Source of the DNA: Campylobacterota bacterium
GTDB lineage: Bacteria; Campylobacterota; Campylobacteria; Campylobacterales; Sulfurovaceae
Assembly (NCBI GenBank): GCA_013153675.1
Contig: JAADEA010000149.1
Span: 1-5,715, forward strand
Direction: 5' to 3'
DNA length: 5,715 nucleotides
The translations under genes were made by a program, and so were the position numbers. Shown here piece by piece: positions 1,386-5,715 of the stretch; the first letter of the stretch is position 1, and each line of letters begins with the position of its first letter. The notes beneath the pieces were generated by a model. That model had not been told where the DNA came from. It did not search any database and saw only the letters and a program-made list of their open reading frames with translations.

Positions 1386-1637
1386 TTATGCCTCTTCTTC
1401 AAGTTGCTTTAGCTTATATTTTAGCTCCTCAATGCTCTCTACATTATCTGGGTCTGGAACAATGCAATCAACTGGACAAACAGCAATACATTGAGGCTCA
1501 TCAAAAAAGCCAACACACTCAGTGCACCTATCTGGGTCAATAATATAGATTGGGTCATTCTCTTCGATTGAACCAGTTGGACACTCTTCTCTGCAAGCAT
1601 CACACGCAATACACTCATCAGTTATCATTAGTGCCAT
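1386..1637 (-). CDS. fdx: Allochromatium-type 2[4Fe-4S] ferredoxin (YfhL/FdxB-like)
   Basis: An 83-residue soluble, acidic ferredoxin carrying two [4Fe-4S] clusters. Cysteines are at 9, 12, 15, 19, 38, 41, 50, 54 and 58. By the known Allochromatium vinosum pattern, Cys9/12/15 with Cys54 bind one cluster and Cys38/41/50 with Cys19 the other. The eight-residue insertion between Cys41 and Cys50 (VGFFDEPQ), the ninth cysteine (Cys58) and the acidic helical tail (residues 64-83) are diagnostic of this subfamily, whose members have very low and unequal cluster potentials. It is a one-electron carrier; the partner is not shown by sequence. It lies 94 bp downstream of the histidine kinase and 3 bp upstream of ppx. 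The ATG is preceded by AAAAGGTAGA, a good ribosome site. I recall a ferredoxin-Ppx/GppA pairing in H. pylori and C. jejuni, so the neighbourhood is conserved and probably functional. Confidence 0.95.
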   Translation of the reverse strand: MALMITDECIACDACREECPTGSIEENDPIYIIDPDRCTECVGFFDEPQCIAVCPVDCIVPDPDNVESIEELKYKLKQLEEEA

Positions 1638-1731: not shown

Positions 1732-3021
1732 TTAATGAATTGGTAACATAATTGTAGCAACTGCGCCCTTTTTGTGGGCTCTATTCTTTAAAGATAGTTT
1801 TGCTTCAATTGAATTAGCCGCATTTTTTGCTAGAAATAATCCAAGTCCTGTTCCGGGAGAATTTTTAGCTCTTTTAAATGGAGCAAAAATATCAAAGTGT
1901 TCTGGAACCCCTGGTCCATTATCTTTTATTCTTACTACCAAATAGTTTTTGCATAAGAAGGAGCTTATTTTTATACTGCTCTTTTTTGGAGTAAATCTAA
2001 TAGCATTTTGGATAAGATTTTGTAGAATCTGTCTTAAGAGAGAGGGTTGAATTTTAGTTTTTAAAGATAGTGGACGAAGCTTTTTTATAATAAACTTCTC
2101 TTCTCTAATTGCTACAATCTCAAACTCCTCTATTAAATCCTCAATAAATTTTATTATATCAATCTCTTTTTTCTCTTCAAACTGAGCCCCTTCAGCTCTT
2201 CCAAAAGCAAGGATTGATTCAATAGTATTATTTAAAGTATCAATTGATTTAATATTTTGCTCTAGCGCTTTGGTTAAAGACTCTATACTTTTATCTTTTT
2301 TTAATAGTGAGACTTGGGCTTTTGTCTTCATAACAGCTAATGGAGTCTTTAGCTCATGTGCGGCTCCAATAAAGAGCTCCTTTTTATATTTTATAAAATT
2401 ATCAACTTTATTGATTAAAGAGTTGATTGCAATCCCTAAAGGTTCAAACTCTTGAGGAAGATTTTTTATATTTATCTTATTAAGCTTGGTCTCATTCATC
2501 TTGGCAATATTTTTGCTTACTATATTAATTGGTCTAATTAACATTTTAGATAGAAAAAAGGCATATATAATAATAATTACCAATGAAGCTATATTGACTA
2601 AAATTACTGCCTTATAGACCACATTTTGAAGATTAATCTTTTTGGTTATATCTTTTGTAAGAACTAAATAGGTTTGGCTTCTAAAGTTATAGGCAAAAAA
2701 TCCTTGCATATAATATTTATTTTTATCTTTTATTATTCTAAAATATTTGGGTTTAAAGTTTAAATAGGGGGCATTTTGCAGTTTTGCCTCAATATTTAAA
2801 GAGTTTTTTAAAATATCTTTTTGAGTATTTAGGATATTAGGAAGATTATAAAAGTCTTTTAATAGATATTTAGCTTGCTGCTCTAGTGACTCTTTTATCT
2901 CTAAATTTGATTTAACTTTTATATAGATATAAAGAGAGAATGAAGTTATTAATACCAGCGTTGCCATAGCAACGCTAAGTTTTAGTAGAAAGTTAACCCT
3001 TAAGCTTCTTCTGAGAAACAA
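1732..3021 (-). CDS. Membrane sensor histidine kinase, partner of the HsrA/CosR-type regulator
   Basis: A 429-residue inner-membrane sensor kinase that autophosphorylates on histidine and should pass phosphate to the adjacent regulator. Layout: basic N-terminus (LRRSLR), membrane segment about 13-34, periplasmic sensor region about 35-136 with no domain I recognise, second membrane segment about 138-158, HAMP linker about 159-210 (Arg-Pro at 163-164), HisKA H-box AHELKTPL with phospho-acceptor His222, then the ATPase domain: N-box NLIQNA (335-340), G1 DNGPGVP (367-373), F-box region around 377-383, and G2 GTGLGL (390-395). All catalytic motifs are intact. The start is TTG, inside the regulator gene (22-bp overlap), 9 nt after an AGAAGAAGAGG ribosome site; an in-frame stop lies just upstream and the next start, Met19, falls inside the membrane segment without a ribosome site. 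Stimulus unknown; the 100-residue periplasmic part implies an envelope or extracellular signal. Confidence 0.93.
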   Translation of the reverse strand: MFLRRSLRVNFLLKLSVAMATLVLITSFSLYIYIKVKSNLEIKESLEQQAKYLLKDFYNLPNILNTQKDILKNSLNIEAKLQNAPYLNFKPKYFRIIKDKNKYYMQGFFAYNFRSQTYLVLTKDITKKINLQNVVYKAVILVNIASLVIIIIYAFFLSKMLIRPINIVSKNIAKMNETKLNKINIKNLPQEFEPLGIAINSLINKVDNFIKYKKELFIGAAHELKTPLAVMKTKAQVSLLKKDKSIESLTKALEQNIKSIDTLNNTIESILAFGRAEGAQFEEKKEIDIIKFIEDLIEEFEIVAIREEKFIIKKLRPLSLKTKIQPSLLRQILQNLIQNAIRFTPKKSSIKISSFLCKNYLVVRIKDNGPGVPEHFDIFAPFKRAKNSPGTGLGLFLAKNAANSIEAKLSLKNRAHKKGAVATIMLPIH

Positions 3022-3671
3022 AAACGATAACCTCTTCTTCTAACCGTTTCAACTGTTGTAATTCCTAATTGTTTGTCCATTTTTTGGCGAATTTGGTTGA
3101 TTGCAACCTCAATCACATTTGGAGTTACAAGCTCAGGCTCTTCCCAAATTGCATCTAAAAGCTGCTCTTTTGAGACAATTTGGTCTTTTCTCATTGCAAG
3201 ATGGGTCAAAACCTCAAATGGCTTTCCTTTTAACTCTACACTCTCACCTTTATAGATAATTTTCTCCTCTTCTGGATTTATTATTAAATCTCCAATTTTT
3301 ATTATATTGCTTCCTCCAAACCTTAGTTTTGCCTCAATTCTCATAAGTAAAATATCAAAATCAAATGGCTTTTTAATATAATCATCTGCCCCAGCTTTTA
3401 ATGCTGCAATTTCACTCTCTTTATCATCTCTTGCAGAAAGAACTATTACAGCAGTCTTATTACTCTTATTCTTTATTTCTGGAATTAAATCGATTCCATT
3501 TCCATCGGGTAACATCCAATCAAGAAGAACTAAATCATAGTGTCTAATACCTAAAAGATATCTTCCATCGCTTAGATTTTCAGCAATATCACTTTGGTAT
3601 CCAAACTCCTTTAAACCCTCACTTAATGTCTGGTTTAGAGTTACTTCATCTTCTATTATTAATATTCTCAT
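3000..3671 (-). CDS. hsrA: OmpR-family response regulator, HsrA/CosR type, with intact phospho-acceptor Asp
   Basis: A 223-residue cytoplasmic transcription factor. Receiver domain, residues 1-118: acidic pocket Glu7-Asp8, phospho-acceptor Asp51 in LLDWMLPDG, switch Ser79 (VLSA), Lys101 in KKPF. Winged-helix DNA-binding domain, about 122-218, with GKPFEVLTHLA, the recognition region TPNVIEVAINQIRQKM and the wing VRRRGYRFCF. From memory this DNA-binding half is almost identical to H. pylori HsrA (HP1043) and C. jejuni CosR, essential regulators of redox, stress and metabolic homeostasis. Those are atypical orphans lacking a normal phosphorylation site; this one has every canonical receiver residue and an overlapping kinase gene. 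The order regulator-ferredoxin-Ppx also resembles, as I recall, the cosR neighbourhood of C. jejuni. The ATG at 3671 follows an extended -10 promoter by about 25 nt, with only a weak ribosome site (GGGAT). The alternative is a close paralogue rather than the true orthologue; OmpR-family assignment is certain. Confidence 0.92.
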   Translation of the reverse strand: MRILIIEDEVTLNQTLSEGLKEFGYQSDIAENLSDGRYLLGIRHYDLVLLDWMLPDGNGIDLIPEIKNKSNKTAVIVLSARDDKESEIAALKAGADDYIKKPFDFDILLMRIEAKLRFGGSNIIKIGDLIINPEEEKIIYKGESVELKGKPFEVLTHLAMRKDQIVSKEQLLDAIWEEPELVTPNVIEVAINQIRQKMDKQLGITTVETVRRRGYRFCFSEEA

Positions 3672-3702: not shown

Positions 3703-3711
3703 ATTATACCA
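3703..3711 (-). promoter_or_regulatory. Extended -10 promoter of the regulator-kinase operon
   Basis: The minus strand reads TGGTATAAT, a perfect TATAAT at 3708-3703 with the TGn extension. The predicted transcription start is near 3696, giving a 5' leader of about 25 nt. No TTGACA-like -35 is seen; sigma-70 promoters of Campylobacterota often lack one. Confidence 0.7.
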
Positions 3712-3725
3712 TAAAAAACTCCATA

Positions 3726-3743
3726 TTTTAAACTATCTTTAAA
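3726..3743 (-). promoter_or_regulatory. Candidate autoregulatory binding site of the HsrA/CosR-type regulator
   Basis: On the minus strand TTTAAAG (3743-3737) and TTTAAAA (3732-3726) form a direct repeat with an 11-bp period, the spacing expected for an OmpR-family dimer binding head to tail. It covers about -47 to -30 relative to the predicted start of the regulator operon. H. pylori HsrA is known to bind its own promoter and, as I recall, prefers TTTAAG-like tandem half-sites. A further TTTAAG lies at 3703-3698. AT richness makes chance matches common. Confidence 0.35.
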
Positions 3744-3868: not shown

Positions 3869-4501
3869 ATGAAGAAGTGGTTATTAGTGATTCTAGTTCC
3901 ATTTTTTTTATATAGTTCTAAGTTGATAAAGATAGATTTATCTAAACAAAAGATTTATGCTTTAGAGAATGGAAAAGTTGTTTTTAGTGGAAATATCTCT
4001 TCTGGAAAGAGTACTCATAAGACCCCTAATGGGTGGTTTAGGATTATTGAAAAAGATATAGACCATGTCTCAAATAAATATCCTGAGCCTGATGGTGGAG
4101 CAAAGATGCCCTATATGCTAAGGTTAACCAATACTGGAATTGCTATACATCAAGGCTATCTCCCTGGATATCCAGCCTCCCATGGATGTATAAGAGTCTC
4201 TAAAAGGACTGCAAAAAAGCTTTGGTATTGGAGTAGAATTGGAACAAGAGTAAAGATATATGGAGATGCAAGTAGATATTTGGCTAAAAAGAGAATAAAG
4301 GTAAAGAAGAAAAAAAAGAGGTATGTAGTTAAACGGAGCAAAAAAAGGTATAAAACCTATAAACGCTCTAAAAAGAAGTATATAAGAAGATATGTAAAAA
4401 AAAGAAAAATAAATAAGACTCCTAGAAAGTCTAAAAGATATTATAGAAGAGTAGCTTCAAATTCTGATTATGAGATTGTGGAGATTTATGATGTTTGGTA
4501 G
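3869..4501 (+). CDS. Secreted L,D-transpeptidase (YkuD domain) with polybasic C-terminal tail
   Basis: A 210-residue exported peptidoglycan enzyme. Residues 1-17 are a signal peptide (MKKW, hydrophobic core to Tyr15, small residues Ser16-Ser17). The YkuD catalytic domain spans about 19-132: strand IKIDLSKQKIYAL, TPNGWFRI (52-59), then the active-site signature with His94, Gly96, Ser104-His105-Gly106-Cys107 and Arg109; Cys107 is the catalytic nucleophile. Family members form 3-3 cross-links in peptidoglycan, attach proteins to it, or act as L,D-carboxypeptidases. It lacks the NTF2-like domain of the helical-shape enzymes Csd6/Pgp2 of Helicobacter and Campylobacter, so it is a different, minimal type. 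Residues 140-194 are 34 Lys/Arg of 55 plus seven Tyr, with an internal 10-residue repeat, then an acidic end (SNSDYEIVEIYDVW). It is transcribed divergently from the two-component operon, which may regulate it. Function of the tail unknown; wall or polyanion binding is my inference. Confidence 0.93.
   Translation: MKKWLLVILVPFFLYSSKLIKIDLSKQKIYALENGKVVFSGNISSGKSTHKTPNGWFRIIEKDIDHVSNKYPEPDGGAKMPYMLRLTNTGIAIHQGYLPGYPASHGCIRVSKRTAKKLWYWSRIGTRVKIYGDASRYLAKKRIKVKKKKKRYVVKRSKKRYKTYKRSKKKYIRRYVKKRKINKTPRKSKRYYRRVASNSDYEIVEIYDVW
4331..4390 (+). repeat. Tandem 10-codon repeat within the basic tail of the transpeptidase
   Basis: Two adjacent 30-bp units encode KRSKKRYKTY and KRSKKKYIRR (residues 155-174), identical in the first five residues and sharing the Tyr at position 7. 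At DNA level the units differ in synonymous positions (Arg CGG versus CGC, Ser AGC versus TCT), so the protein pattern is kept while the DNA has diverged. Confidence 0.6.
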
Positions 4502-4504
4502 GTT

Positions 4505-4849
4505 TTAAAACTCTTCTAAATACTCTCTTTCCCACCTATTGGAGAGAGAGACGATACAATCTTTTAAAATGTTTGGTTTAGAGATTTTTAGATAAAGAGA
4601 ATCAATCAATTCAAACTCTTTAAAGATTTCTTCTTTAATAGCAACTAATGCCTCTTCTAATAAAAAGAACTTTTGCTCTTGCATAAGAGTTTTAATTAAA
4701 TTGCAAATTTGCACATAATCTATATAGCTCTTATTCTCATAGCTATAAGAGGCTTTGAGGTTAATAATTACCTCTTGCTCTTTTTCTCTTTCAAAATCTA
4801 GCACACCAATAATAGTTTTAAATCTAAAATCTTCAATCTCTATTGTCAA
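4505..4849 (-). CDS. folB: Dihydroneopterin aldolase (folate biosynthesis)
   Basis: A 114-residue cytoplasmic enzyme of the FolB family, which cleaves 7,8-dihydroneopterin to 6-hydroxymethyl-7,8-dihydropterin and glycolaldehyde. By comparison with the well-studied Staphylococcus enzyme: IIGVLDFERE at 13-22 (Glu20 equals Glu22), DYVQI with Tyr45 (Tyr54), FLLEEAL with Leu64-Glu65 (Leu73-Glu74, pterin anchoring), and KISKP with catalytic Lys91 (Lys100). Length is normal for the family. The start codon is TTG, overlapping the plsY stop as TTGA (4 bp), behind the purine-rich GAGGAAGGAAGAG inside plsY; no other usable start exists nearby, so translation is coupled to plsY. Its stop is 3 bp from that of the convergent transpeptidase gene. 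The pairing with plsY is one I recall from other Campylobacterota and probably reflects co-transcription rather than a shared pathway. Confidence 0.9.
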   Translation of the reverse strand: MTIEIEDFRFKTIIGVLDFEREKEQEVIINLKASYSYENKSYIDYVQICNLIKTLMQEQKFFLLEEALVAIKEEIFKEFELIDSLYLKISKPNILKDCIVSLSNRWEREYLEEF

Positions 4850-5502
4850 ACTACTCTTCCTTCCTCTTTTGAAAGCAATCTTTTAATATTTGGAATATGT
4901 TTATAAAATATAATAAATGCAATTAGATAAAGTGGGGCAAATGAATAGATTCCAGGAAGCCCATCTGGATATATAATTTTTGCACTAATTAAAAGAACTG
5001 CTAGAGCAATTAGCGAAGATAAAGATGATATTTTTAAAACTTTTGCACTAATTGCCCAAGCTAAAAGAGCAATTAGAGTTGGAATTGGAATTAAAAATAG
5101 CAATACTCCAAAGGCAGTTGCTACTCCTTTTCCACCTTCAAATTTTAGATATGGAGAGTAGCAATGTCCAAGCACTGCAAAGACTGCAACTGACCATAAA
5201 GTAAATTCACTTGCTCCAAGATATTTTGCAACTAAAAGAACAATAACCCCTTTTATTGCATCTAAAAACAGAGTTAATGCTCCAAGCTTTTTTGCTAGCT
5301 TTTCATCTTTTTGCTTTAGCACTCTTAAGACATTTGTTGCTCCAATATTTTTGCTGCCAGCCTCTTTTACATTAACTCCTCCAACATATTTTGCAAGCAA
5401 ATATCCAAATGGAATCCCTCCAATAAGATATGCACTAAGATAAAGCATTCCATTAAAGCTTGTAAGTAGCTCAATTAGCCCTTCAATTATATTGCCTATC
5501 AA
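4846..5502 (-). CDS. plsY: Acyl-phosphate:glycerol-3-phosphate acyltransferase
   Basis: A 218-residue integral inner-membrane enzyme that transfers an acyl group from acyl-phosphate to glycerol-3-phosphate, making lysophosphatidic acid, the first committed step of phospholipid synthesis. Motif 1: GSKNIGATNVLR (49-60; Lys51 where many homologues have Gly). Middle signature: LDAIKG (80-85). Motif 2: GHCYSPYLKFEGGKGVATAFG (112-132), the phosphate-binding part. Motif 3: KHIPNIKRLL (201-210), ending SKEE where others have a GTE. Membrane segments lie at about 20-40, 75-95, 100-115, 130-155, 160-177 and 188-200. The start used is TTG at 5502, 5 nt after AAAGGGG; Met19 is an alternative that would give the shorter N-terminus of the E. 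coli protein, but as I recall the H. pylori protein has a similarly long N-terminus, so I keep the TTG. First gene of the plsY-folB operon, with its own extended -10 promoter. Confidence 0.95.
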   Translation of the reverse strand: MIGNIIEGLIELLTSFNGMLYLSAYLIGGIPFGYLLAKYVGGVNVKEAGSKNIGATNVLRVLKQKDEKLAKKLGALTLFLDAIKGVIVLLVAKYLGASEFTLWSVAVFAVLGHCYSPYLKFEGGKGVATAFGVLLFLIPIPTLIALLAWAISAKVLKISSLSSLIALAVLLISAKIIYPDGLPGIYSFAPLYLIAFIIFYKHIPNIKRLLSKEEGRVV

Positions 5503-5613: not shown

Positions 5614-5715
5614 ATGGAGTTTGAGTATGATGAAAAAAAGAGTCAAATAAACAAGCTTAAACATGGGATTGATTTTGAAGAAGCTAAAAAACTATGGATG
5701 GATCCTTTAGCTTTT
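5614..5715 (+). CDS. brnT: BrnT-family ribonuclease toxin, N-terminal 34 codons (continues past window)
   Basis: Only the first 34 residues are visible: MEFEYDEKKS, then N13, KHGIDFEEAKKLW (16-28) and DP at 30-31. This is the standard opening of BrnT toxins, small RelE-fold ribonucleases (about 90-100 residues) whose cognate antitoxin BrnA is normally encoded directly downstream and represses the shared promoter. The FEYDExKS...N...KHGIDFEEA pattern is strongly diagnostic. An in-frame TAA immediately precedes the ATG, so the start cannot lie further upstream. It is divergent from plsY with 111 bp between them. The active-site residues and the antitoxin are beyond the window, so whether the module is intact is unknown. 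Confidence 0.88.
   Translation, partial: MEFEYDEKKSQINKLKHGIDFEEAKKLWMDPLAF

What the first reader, a model, noticed from the sequence alone, without database searches (positions are those of the whole stretch)
1732..3671. HsrA/CosR-type regulator with an intact receiver and its own histidine kinase
The regulator's DNA-binding half matches, from memory, HsrA of H. pylori and CosR of C. jejuni nearly residue for residue. Those proteins are known as orphan, phosphorylation-independent regulators. Here Glu7-Asp8, Asp51, Ser79 and Lys101 are all present, and a complete kinase (His222, N, G1 and G2 boxes) overlaps the gene by 22 bp. I infer that this locus keeps the kinase-controlled ancestral state, and that loss of the kinase and of the phospho-acceptor came later in host-associated lineages. 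The kinase's periplasmic sensor region, which matches nothing I know, would then be the lost input to an essential redox/homeostasis regulon.
Basis: partly seen in the sequence, partly recalled or inferred. Interest (0 to 1): 0.8.

Follow-up and report, generated by a model that had tools for sequence, protein, structure and literature searches.

The report
Kinase-paired member of HsrA/CosR regulators
This bacterium has a master gene regulator known from Helicobacter and Campylobacter with its sensor kinase still attached; the pair type is already known, but comparing several hundred related loci suggests that the kinase was lost several times and that the regulator's switch decays afterwards.

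Summary
The window encodes a CosR/HsrA orthologue (3000-3671, minus) and an overlapping HisKA kinase (1732-3021, minus): the CosRS arrangement published in 2014, with phosphotransfer shown for C. fetus (PMC3938529). The window pair is a new member, from a Sulfurovaceae-like lineage.

A kinase lies next to cosR in 235, and all 235 regulators keep E7, D8, G19, D51, M53, S79, A80 and K101. In 145 loci without a kinase, D51 is lost in 114 and kept in 31. No kinase-bearing locus lacks D51, so kinase loss precedes D51 loss. On an rpoB tree of 60 genomes the kinase changes state at least 7 times, once inside the clade holding a named Sulfurovum, so 'host-associated lineages' is too narrow. An 11-bp-period CosR/HsrA box upstream of cosR is enriched with and without kinase; the window has one at 3727-3743. 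The sensor is predicted PAS-like.

Open: whether the phylum's ancestor had the kinase (the most divergent clade lacks it). Phosphotransfer in this pair and its signal are inferred, not shown.

The parts
3000..3671 (-). cosR/hsrA orthologue: OmpR/PhoB-type response regulator, 223 aa, acidic pocket E7-D8, phospho-acceptor D51 (codon 3519-3521), S79, K101
1732..3021 (-). cosS orthologue: membrane histidine kinase, 429 aa from TTG; H222 (codon 2356-2358) in HELKT, N box N335/N339, G1 D367-G369, G2 G390-G394
2608..2934 (-). codons 30-138 of the kinase: end of the TM1 helix, extracytoplasmic sensor with a four-stranded sheet, start of the TM2 helix; PAS-like fold predicted
3727..3743 (-). candidate CosR/HsrA box TTTAAA-N5-TTTAAA (11-bp period) upstream of cosR; the half-site is self-complementary, so the box reads on both strands
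   Evidence: published HP1043 motif of two TTTAAG repeats with a 5-bp spacer (PMC5253667, passages)
3703..3732 (-). promoter-like site: TG-extended TATAAT with the promoter-proximal TTTAAA half-site in the -35 position
   Evidence: 2 overlapping sites found, shuffles mean 1.5: not significant by itself
1386..1637 (-). 4Fe-4S ferredoxin gene; in 64 kinase-less relatives it lies just after cosR
4505..4849 (-). FolB gene, upstream neighbour in kinase-bearing and kinase-less loci
4846..5502 (-). PlsY-type glycerol-3-phosphate acyltransferase, upstream neighbour

Best explanation
The locus is a CosS-CosR two-component system. CosS, with an extracytoplasmic PAS-like sensor, autophosphorylates at H222 and passes the phosphate to D51 of CosR; CosR binds tandem TTTAAR half-sites 11 bp apart, among them one over the -35 place of its own promoter, so the operon is autoregulated. 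This is the kinase-coupled form of the regulator known as orphan HsrA in H. pylori and orphan CosR in C. jejuni. In Campylobacterota the kinase has been lost in several separate lineages; where the old gene order is kept, cosS is simply missing from between cosR and the ferredoxin gene. The regulator kept its DNA-binding half and box while the receiver decayed: kinase-facing and loop positions (G19, M53, A80, D82) changed, and in many lineages D51 followed. Shown here: orthology, motifs, gene order, co-distribution, order of kinase and D51 loss, box enrichment. Inferred: phosphotransfer in this pair, autoregulation, the role of G19 as a kinase-contact position, the signal.
For: Kinase adjacent in 235 loci (window included), with E7 D8 G19 D51 M53 S79 A80 K101 in 235 of 235 (213 distinct regulator sequences). 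Of 145 kinase-less loci D51 is lost in 114 and kept in 31; none of the 235, nor the 3 loci with a displaced kinase, lacks D51. Whole-genome search for the kinase: no match at E 1e-25 in 11 Helicobacteraceae-type genomes, 6 L025-type, 3 L279/L297-type and 9 of the most divergent clade, all with D51, nor in 2 with R8-D51; 9 genomes with an adjacent or displaced kinase gave E 5.4e-63 or better. rpoB tree of 60 genomes: at least 7 kinase changes. The ferredoxin frame begins a median 1364 bp after cosR with the kinase (n=110) and 93 bp without (n=64). TTAAR repeats at period 11 upstream of cosR: 30 of 50 kinase-bearing and 34 of 85 kinase-less representatives, 2.5 and 3.0 expected from dinucleotide shuffles; other periods 0-8. 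C. fetus CosS phosphorylates C. fetus CosR in vitro (PMC3938529).
Against: The most divergent clade (9 genomes) lacks the kinase, with K or R at position 8 in 8 of 8 scored loci; taking it as outgroup, one gain plus six losses costs the same as seven losses. The root of the rpoB tree was set by me on two of its genomes. The independent-pair test on that tree goes the expected way (3-4 agree, 0 disagree, 1-2 no difference) but gives p 0.125-0.25. The H. pylori-type HsrA loci (L185, L188-L191) have G19 although positions 51-54 are deleted and the kinase is gone, so G19 is not lost in every decayed receiver. 91 of the 397 genomes were not fetched; the 60 rpoB genomes were chosen to cover the states. 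C. fetus CosR bound C. jejuni target promoters only very weakly (PMC3938529), against one conserved regulon. The window's single promoter-like site is not above shuffles, and box matches with one mismatch are not in excess in the window (8 found, 14 of 200 shuffles reach 8).
Confidence: 0.87

Rival explanations
1. The kinase joined cosR after the most divergent clade split off (one gain in the ancestor of the rest), so the regulator of the phylum's ancestor was an orphan and the window shows a derived coupling.
For: In that clade cosR is followed directly by the ferredoxin and Ppx-type genes and no kinase is found elsewhere at E 1e-25 in 9 of 9 genomes; equal parsimony if it is the outgroup.
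Against: Its receiver keeps D51, S79 and K101 but has K or R at position 8 in 8 of 8 scored loci, which looks like a decayed canonical receiver and so implies an earlier kinase partner (inference).
Confidence: 0.25
2. The co-distribution reflects shared ancestry only: a few old clades lost the kinase and their receivers drifted for unrelated reasons.
For: Independent pairs are few and do not reach significance; G19 is present in H. pylori-type HsrA without kinase.
Against: D51 is lost in separate groups (thermotolerant-Campylobacter type 44 of 44, Sulfurovum-clade orphans 10 of 10, L126 1 of 1, main Helicobacteraceae type 59 of 72) with different replacements, while 235 of 235 kinase-bearing loci keep it; L126 (S51) stands among kinase-bearing Helicobacteraceae on the rpoB tree.
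Confidence: 0.1
3. The window's CosS is not the main kinase of CosR in the cell; another kinase or a small phosphodonor sets CosR, and CosS acts mainly as phosphatase or on another partner.
For: 21 kinase-less loci keep all five catalytic residues, so D51 can be kept without CosS; cosS is dispensable in C. fetus while cosR could not be knocked out (PMC3938529).
Against: Overlapping genes, co-distribution across 235 loci, and published transfer in C. fetus.
Confidence: 0.07

Closest known systems
CosRS of Campylobacter fetus (PMC3938529)
   Same: CosR with D51, kinase gene directly downstream, histidine kinase motifs; the paper also reports cosS in C. concisus, C. curvus, C. hominis, Wolinella, Arcobacter butzleri, Sulfurospirillum deleyianum and H. 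pullorum
   Different: The window lineage is Sulfurovaceae-like; its phosphotransfer is untested; the signal is unknown in both
HsrA (HP1043) of Helicobacter pylori, PDB 2hqr
   Same: Very similar DNA-binding half; published box of two TTTAAG repeats with a 5-bp spacer, and autoregulation (PMC5253667, PMC9449129, passages)
   Different: No kinase, four residues around position 51 missing, K8; phosphorylation-independent in the literature
CosR structure entries 8uvx/8uuz
   Same: Orthologue; very similar DNA-binding half
   Different: S51, N19 and N53 in the deposited sequence; the matching genomic locus L319 has no kinase next to it
Pseudo-receiver / aspartate-less receiver regulators (PMC12632262, PMC4395418; passages read)
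   Same: Most kinase-less relatives are of this kind
   Different: The window protein is a true receiver by all five residues

Membership tests
CosR/HsrA orthologue group | Full-length best match, well apart from other OmpR-type regulators | tested here: met
   CosR E 9e-108, HsrA E 3e-82, next PDB family E 1e-32; one protein at 75-91% in each of 13 genomes, next at most 38%
CosR/HsrA orthologue group | Tandem TTTAAR box with 5-bp spacer upstream of its own gene | tested here: met
   Window 3727-3743, 0 mismatches to TTTAARNNNNNTTTAAR; enrichment in relatives. Binding not tested
Orphan, phosphorylation-independent HsrA type | No cognate kinase gene and a degenerate receiver | tested here: not met
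   Kinase overlaps the gene; E7 D8 D51 S79 K101 present
CosRS two-component system | HisKA/HATPase kinase directly downstream with catalytic motifs | tested here: met
CosRS two-component system | CosS phosphorylates CosR | not testable with these tools
   Shown for C. fetus (PMC3938529)
Extracytoplasmic PAS-like (PDC/Cache) sensor domains | Long N-terminal helix, antiparallel sheet, fold match to solved members | tested here: inconclusive

The most novel reading that the evidence does not exclude
CosR is a natural series, inside one phylum and largely at one gene position, of the path from a kinase-coupled receiver to a phosphorylation-free pseudo-receiver: the kinase goes first, then kinase-facing and loop residues (M53, and mostly G19, A80, D82), then D51, with the DNA-binding half and its box kept. 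One lineage (G019, G128, G355, G401) carries both forms together: a kinase-type CosR and a second copy with an altered receiver active site and a DNA-binding half 72-84% identical, so both may compete for the same boxes.
Probability: 0.55. Interest if true: 0.68.

Novelty: new member of a known kind. Interest (0 to 1): 0.5.

Why it matters
HsrA/CosR is reported essential in H. pylori and C. jejuni and studied as a drug target (PMC9449129, PMC11432330, passages), yet how orphan, phosphorylation-free regulators arise and what switches them is open. The distribution table turns that into a testable order of events, and the window protein offers a kinase-controlled version from what looks like an environmental lineage. 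It also bears on a published puzzle: C. [quoted passage not shown] fetus CosS even with aspartate at position 51 (PMC3938529). Relatives of the thermotolerant type differ from every kinase-bearing CosR at positions 19 and 53 as well (44 of 44 loci), so the acceptor is not the only difference.

Tried and rejected
Paralogue hypothesis (a separate orphan HsrA elsewhere in the genome): no support in 13 genomes; cannot be checked in the window's own genome, which is not held. Eight genomes of the wider sample do have a second CosR-like copy.

Kinase remnants in kinase-less loci: tblastn hit 4 of 150 loci. L253 and L257 hold a kinase about 0.4 kb further downstream and were moved to the kinase group. 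The L243 hit is an artefact: cosR there is frame-shifted and the hit lies on out-of-frame DNA-binding-domain sequence. The L099 hit covers only 19 residues at the gene overlap; its kinase lies 3.5 kb away. So no true remnant was found with this test.

Labels such as 'thermotolerant-Campylobacter type', 'Helicobacteraceae type' and 'Sulfurovum clade' are mine, from matches to the PDB proteins, named loci in the trees, and the fused rpoB-rpoC reading frame, a Helicobacter/Wolinella trait that I recall. The most divergent clade may be Nautiliales (a guess). The L025-type MAGs may come from termite guts (a recollection from isolate codes, not used).

Thiol sensing by sensor cysteines: 70 of 75 sensors have none, so unlikely. 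Plasmid search: only general OmpR-type matches under 60% identity among the 5000 records kept. Whole-kinase fold search: rows filled by kinase domains, so the sensor was modelled alone. Papers: the lists (10-20 rows shown of up to 273) showed only PMC3938529 with a title about cosS distribution; open-licence papers only.

Rows dropped: 8 second-copy loci and 4 loci cut by a contig end were left out of the counts, and 3 loci with a displaced kinase (L099, L110, L163) out of the 145. Some of L001-L080 repeat genomes of the phylum sample, so loci are not species counts.

Full report
What is there. The window carries, on the minus strand, a 223-aa OmpR/PhoB-type regulator (3000-3671) and a 429-aa histidine kinase (1732-3021) that overlaps it by 22 bp. 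Domains are Response_reg + Trans_reg_C, and HisKA + HATPase_c. The PDB sequences nearest to the regulator are CosR (8uvx, 8uuz) and HsrA (2hqr), E 9e-108 to 3e-82, well ahead of the next family at 1e-32. Neighbours are Ppx/GppA, ferredoxin, [cosS-cosR], an L,D-transpeptidase, FolB, PlsY and the start of a BrnT-like gene.

What is already known. Hwang et al. 2014 (PMC3938529; parts 1-3 of 4 of the text read) named cosS, found it after cosR in non-thermotolerant Campylobacter, and in Wolinella, Arcobacter butzleri, Sulfurospirillum deleyianum and H. pullorum, showed transfer from C. fetus CosS to C. fetus CosR, and noted N or S at position 51 in thermotolerant species. PMC10936212 (passages) repeats that how C. 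jejuni CosR gets its signal is unknown.

Orthology and sample. In 13 genomes reached through named loci, 13 of 13 have one protein of 75-91% identity to the window regulator, next best at most 38%. In a sample of 397 genomes of the phylum, 397 of 397 have a match at E 1e-45 or better. DNA around cosR was fetched for 306 of these 397 (159 with adjacent kinase, 144 without, 3 cut by a contig end); 91 were not fetched. With 80 named loci, 8 second-copy loci and the window, 395 rows were scored.

Kinase and receiver. After two loci with a spacer before the kinase were moved, 235 rows (window included) have the kinase next to cosR. E7, D8, G19, D51, M53, S79, A80 and K101 are present in 235 of 235, D82 in 234 (213 distinct regulator sequences). 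Three more loci have the kinase elsewhere in the genome (G144, G310, G355) and the same signature. The 145 loci without kinase fall into groups: most divergent clade 8 loci, D51 in 8 but K or R at position 8; Sulfurovum-clade orphans 10, D51 in 0; L025 type 7 (6 genomes), all scored residues intact; thermotolerant-Campylobacter type 44, D51 in 0 (N or S); L279/L297 type 3, D51 in 3; L126 1, S51; main Helicobacteraceae type 72, D51 in 13. In all, D51 kept 31, lost 114. Of the 31, 21 have all five catalytic residues.

Order of loss. A search of 46 whole genomes found no CosS at E 1e-25 in the D51-keeping kinase-less genomes (11 + 2 Helicobacteraceae type, 6 L025 type, 3 L279/L297 type, 9 of the most divergent clade), while 9 genomes with adjacent or displaced kinase gave E 5.4e-63 or better; one further match, G227 at 8.5e-26, I take for a general kinase. 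Hence D51 outlives the kinase in several lineages, and the reverse was not seen. M53 is kept without kinase only in the L025 type (7 of 7) and 1 of 3 of the L279/L297 type. G19 is kept in the L025 type (7 of 7), the L279/L297 type (3 of 3) and, against the trend, in 5 of 72 main Helicobacteraceae loci, which are the H. pylori-type HsrA sequences with the deletion at 51-54. In the 13 D51-keeping Helicobacteraceae loci G19 and M53 are both gone (0 of 13), so there they went before D51. Of 42 receiver columns at least 95% conserved in the kinase group, the L025 representative keeps 100%, L279/L297 93%, the D51-keeping Helicobacteraceae subclade 82%, D51-lost representatives 71%, D51-keeping ones with a changed pocket 60%. 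Mean pairwise receiver divergence is 29.1% in the kinase group, 28.9% in D51-keeping orphans with intact pocket, 34.8% with changed pocket and 50.7% in D51-lost representatives; the DNA-binding half gives 13.0, 4.5, 12.5 and 15.9% (the frame-shifted L243 is in the last group). By the offset of the phospho-aspartate (D53 in RR468, D51 here), G19 corresponds to N21 of RR468, one of the positions mutated in the rewired HK853-RR468 interface (entry titles); this mapping is an inference.

Trees. A tree of 137 regulator representatives with the trait columns removed and an rpoB tree of 60 genomes show most of the same kinase-less groups; on the regulator tree the thermotolerant type is not drawn as one clade and 58 of 133 inner branches are open. 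The rpoB tree was rooted by me on two genomes of the most divergent clade. On it the kinase changes state at least 7 times and D51 at least 6, whatever the root. Kinase-less groups there: the most divergent clade; six genomes inside the 9-genome clade (100*) that holds a named Sulfurovum; the L025 type, sister to Sulfurospirillum; the thermotolerant type; a two-genome and a 21-genome Helicobacteraceae group (their relation is an open fork); and G045 among kinase-bearing Helicobacteraceae. The independent-pairs test goes the expected way (3-4 for, 0 against, 1-2 no difference) but is too small for significance, p 0.125-0.25.

Gene order. The ferredoxin frame follows cosR after a median 1364 bp in the 110 kinase-bearing loci where it was found downstream, and after 93 bp in 64 kinase-less loci; FolB lies upstream in 171 and 66 (distances are between open frames, not exact gene starts). 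Ferredoxin was not found in the DNA held for 125 and 82 loci, some of which are short, and lay elsewhere in 2. So in lineages that keep the order, cosS is missing from between its neighbours; no true kinase remnant was seen.

DNA target. Upstream of cosR, TTAAR pairs with period 11 occur in 30 of 50 kinase-bearing and 34 of 85 kinase-less representatives, against 2.5 and 3.0 expected from dinucleotide shuffles; other periods from 7 to 16 give 0-8 (two displaced-kinase representatives, L099 and L163, are in the second group). This is the published HP1043 box (two TTTAAG repeats, 5-bp spacer; PMC5253667, passages). In the window a site without mismatch lies at 3727-3743, its proximal half in the -35 place of a TG-extended -10, the arrangement described for HP1043 promoters. 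Counts of one-mismatch boxes in the window are not in excess.

Two-copy genomes. Eight genomes hold a second CosR-like protein. In four (G019, G128, G355, G401) its DNA-binding half is 72-84% identical to the genome's own CosR while the receiver is 29-36% identical; D51 is present in all four, E7 and K101 in none, D8 in one. Only L239 has enough DNA downstream to say that no kinase follows; the other three are cut short. These are draft genomes, so contamination is not excluded.

Verdict. What goes beyond the papers I found is the phylum-wide table, the order of loss, the further kinase-linked residues and the two-copy lineage.

Noticed in passing
L198, L239, L244, L323 (genomes G128, G401, G355, G019): Second CosR-like regulators lacking E7 and K101, with a DNA-binding half 72-84% identical to the kinase-type CosR of the same genome.
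   Followed up: partly
L324, L325, L326, L327 (genomes G058, G257, G218, G145): More distant second CosR-like copies (DNA-binding half 50-61% identical to the genome's own CosR).
   Followed up: partly
window 5614-5715 (+): Start of a BrnT-like type II toxin-antitoxin gene, cut by the window end; just under Pfam's cut-off (32.6 of 34.5 bits).
   Followed up: partly
window 3869-4501 (+): L,D-transpeptidase (YkuD domain) with a very Lys/Arg-rich C-terminal tail, divergent from cosR.
   Followed up: no
L243 (genome G184): cosR is frame-shifted between receiver and DNA-binding half, the rest readable in another frame; real or assembly error not decided.
   Followed up: partly
L224, L226 (genomes G346, G305): D51 present with R8 and A79 among kinase-less relatives with S or G at 51: retention or return of the aspartate.
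   Followed up: no
PDB 8uvx/8uuz as printed: The deposited CosR sequence has S at position 51, while the papers read give N for C. jejuni and S for C. coli; strain not checked.
   Followed up: no
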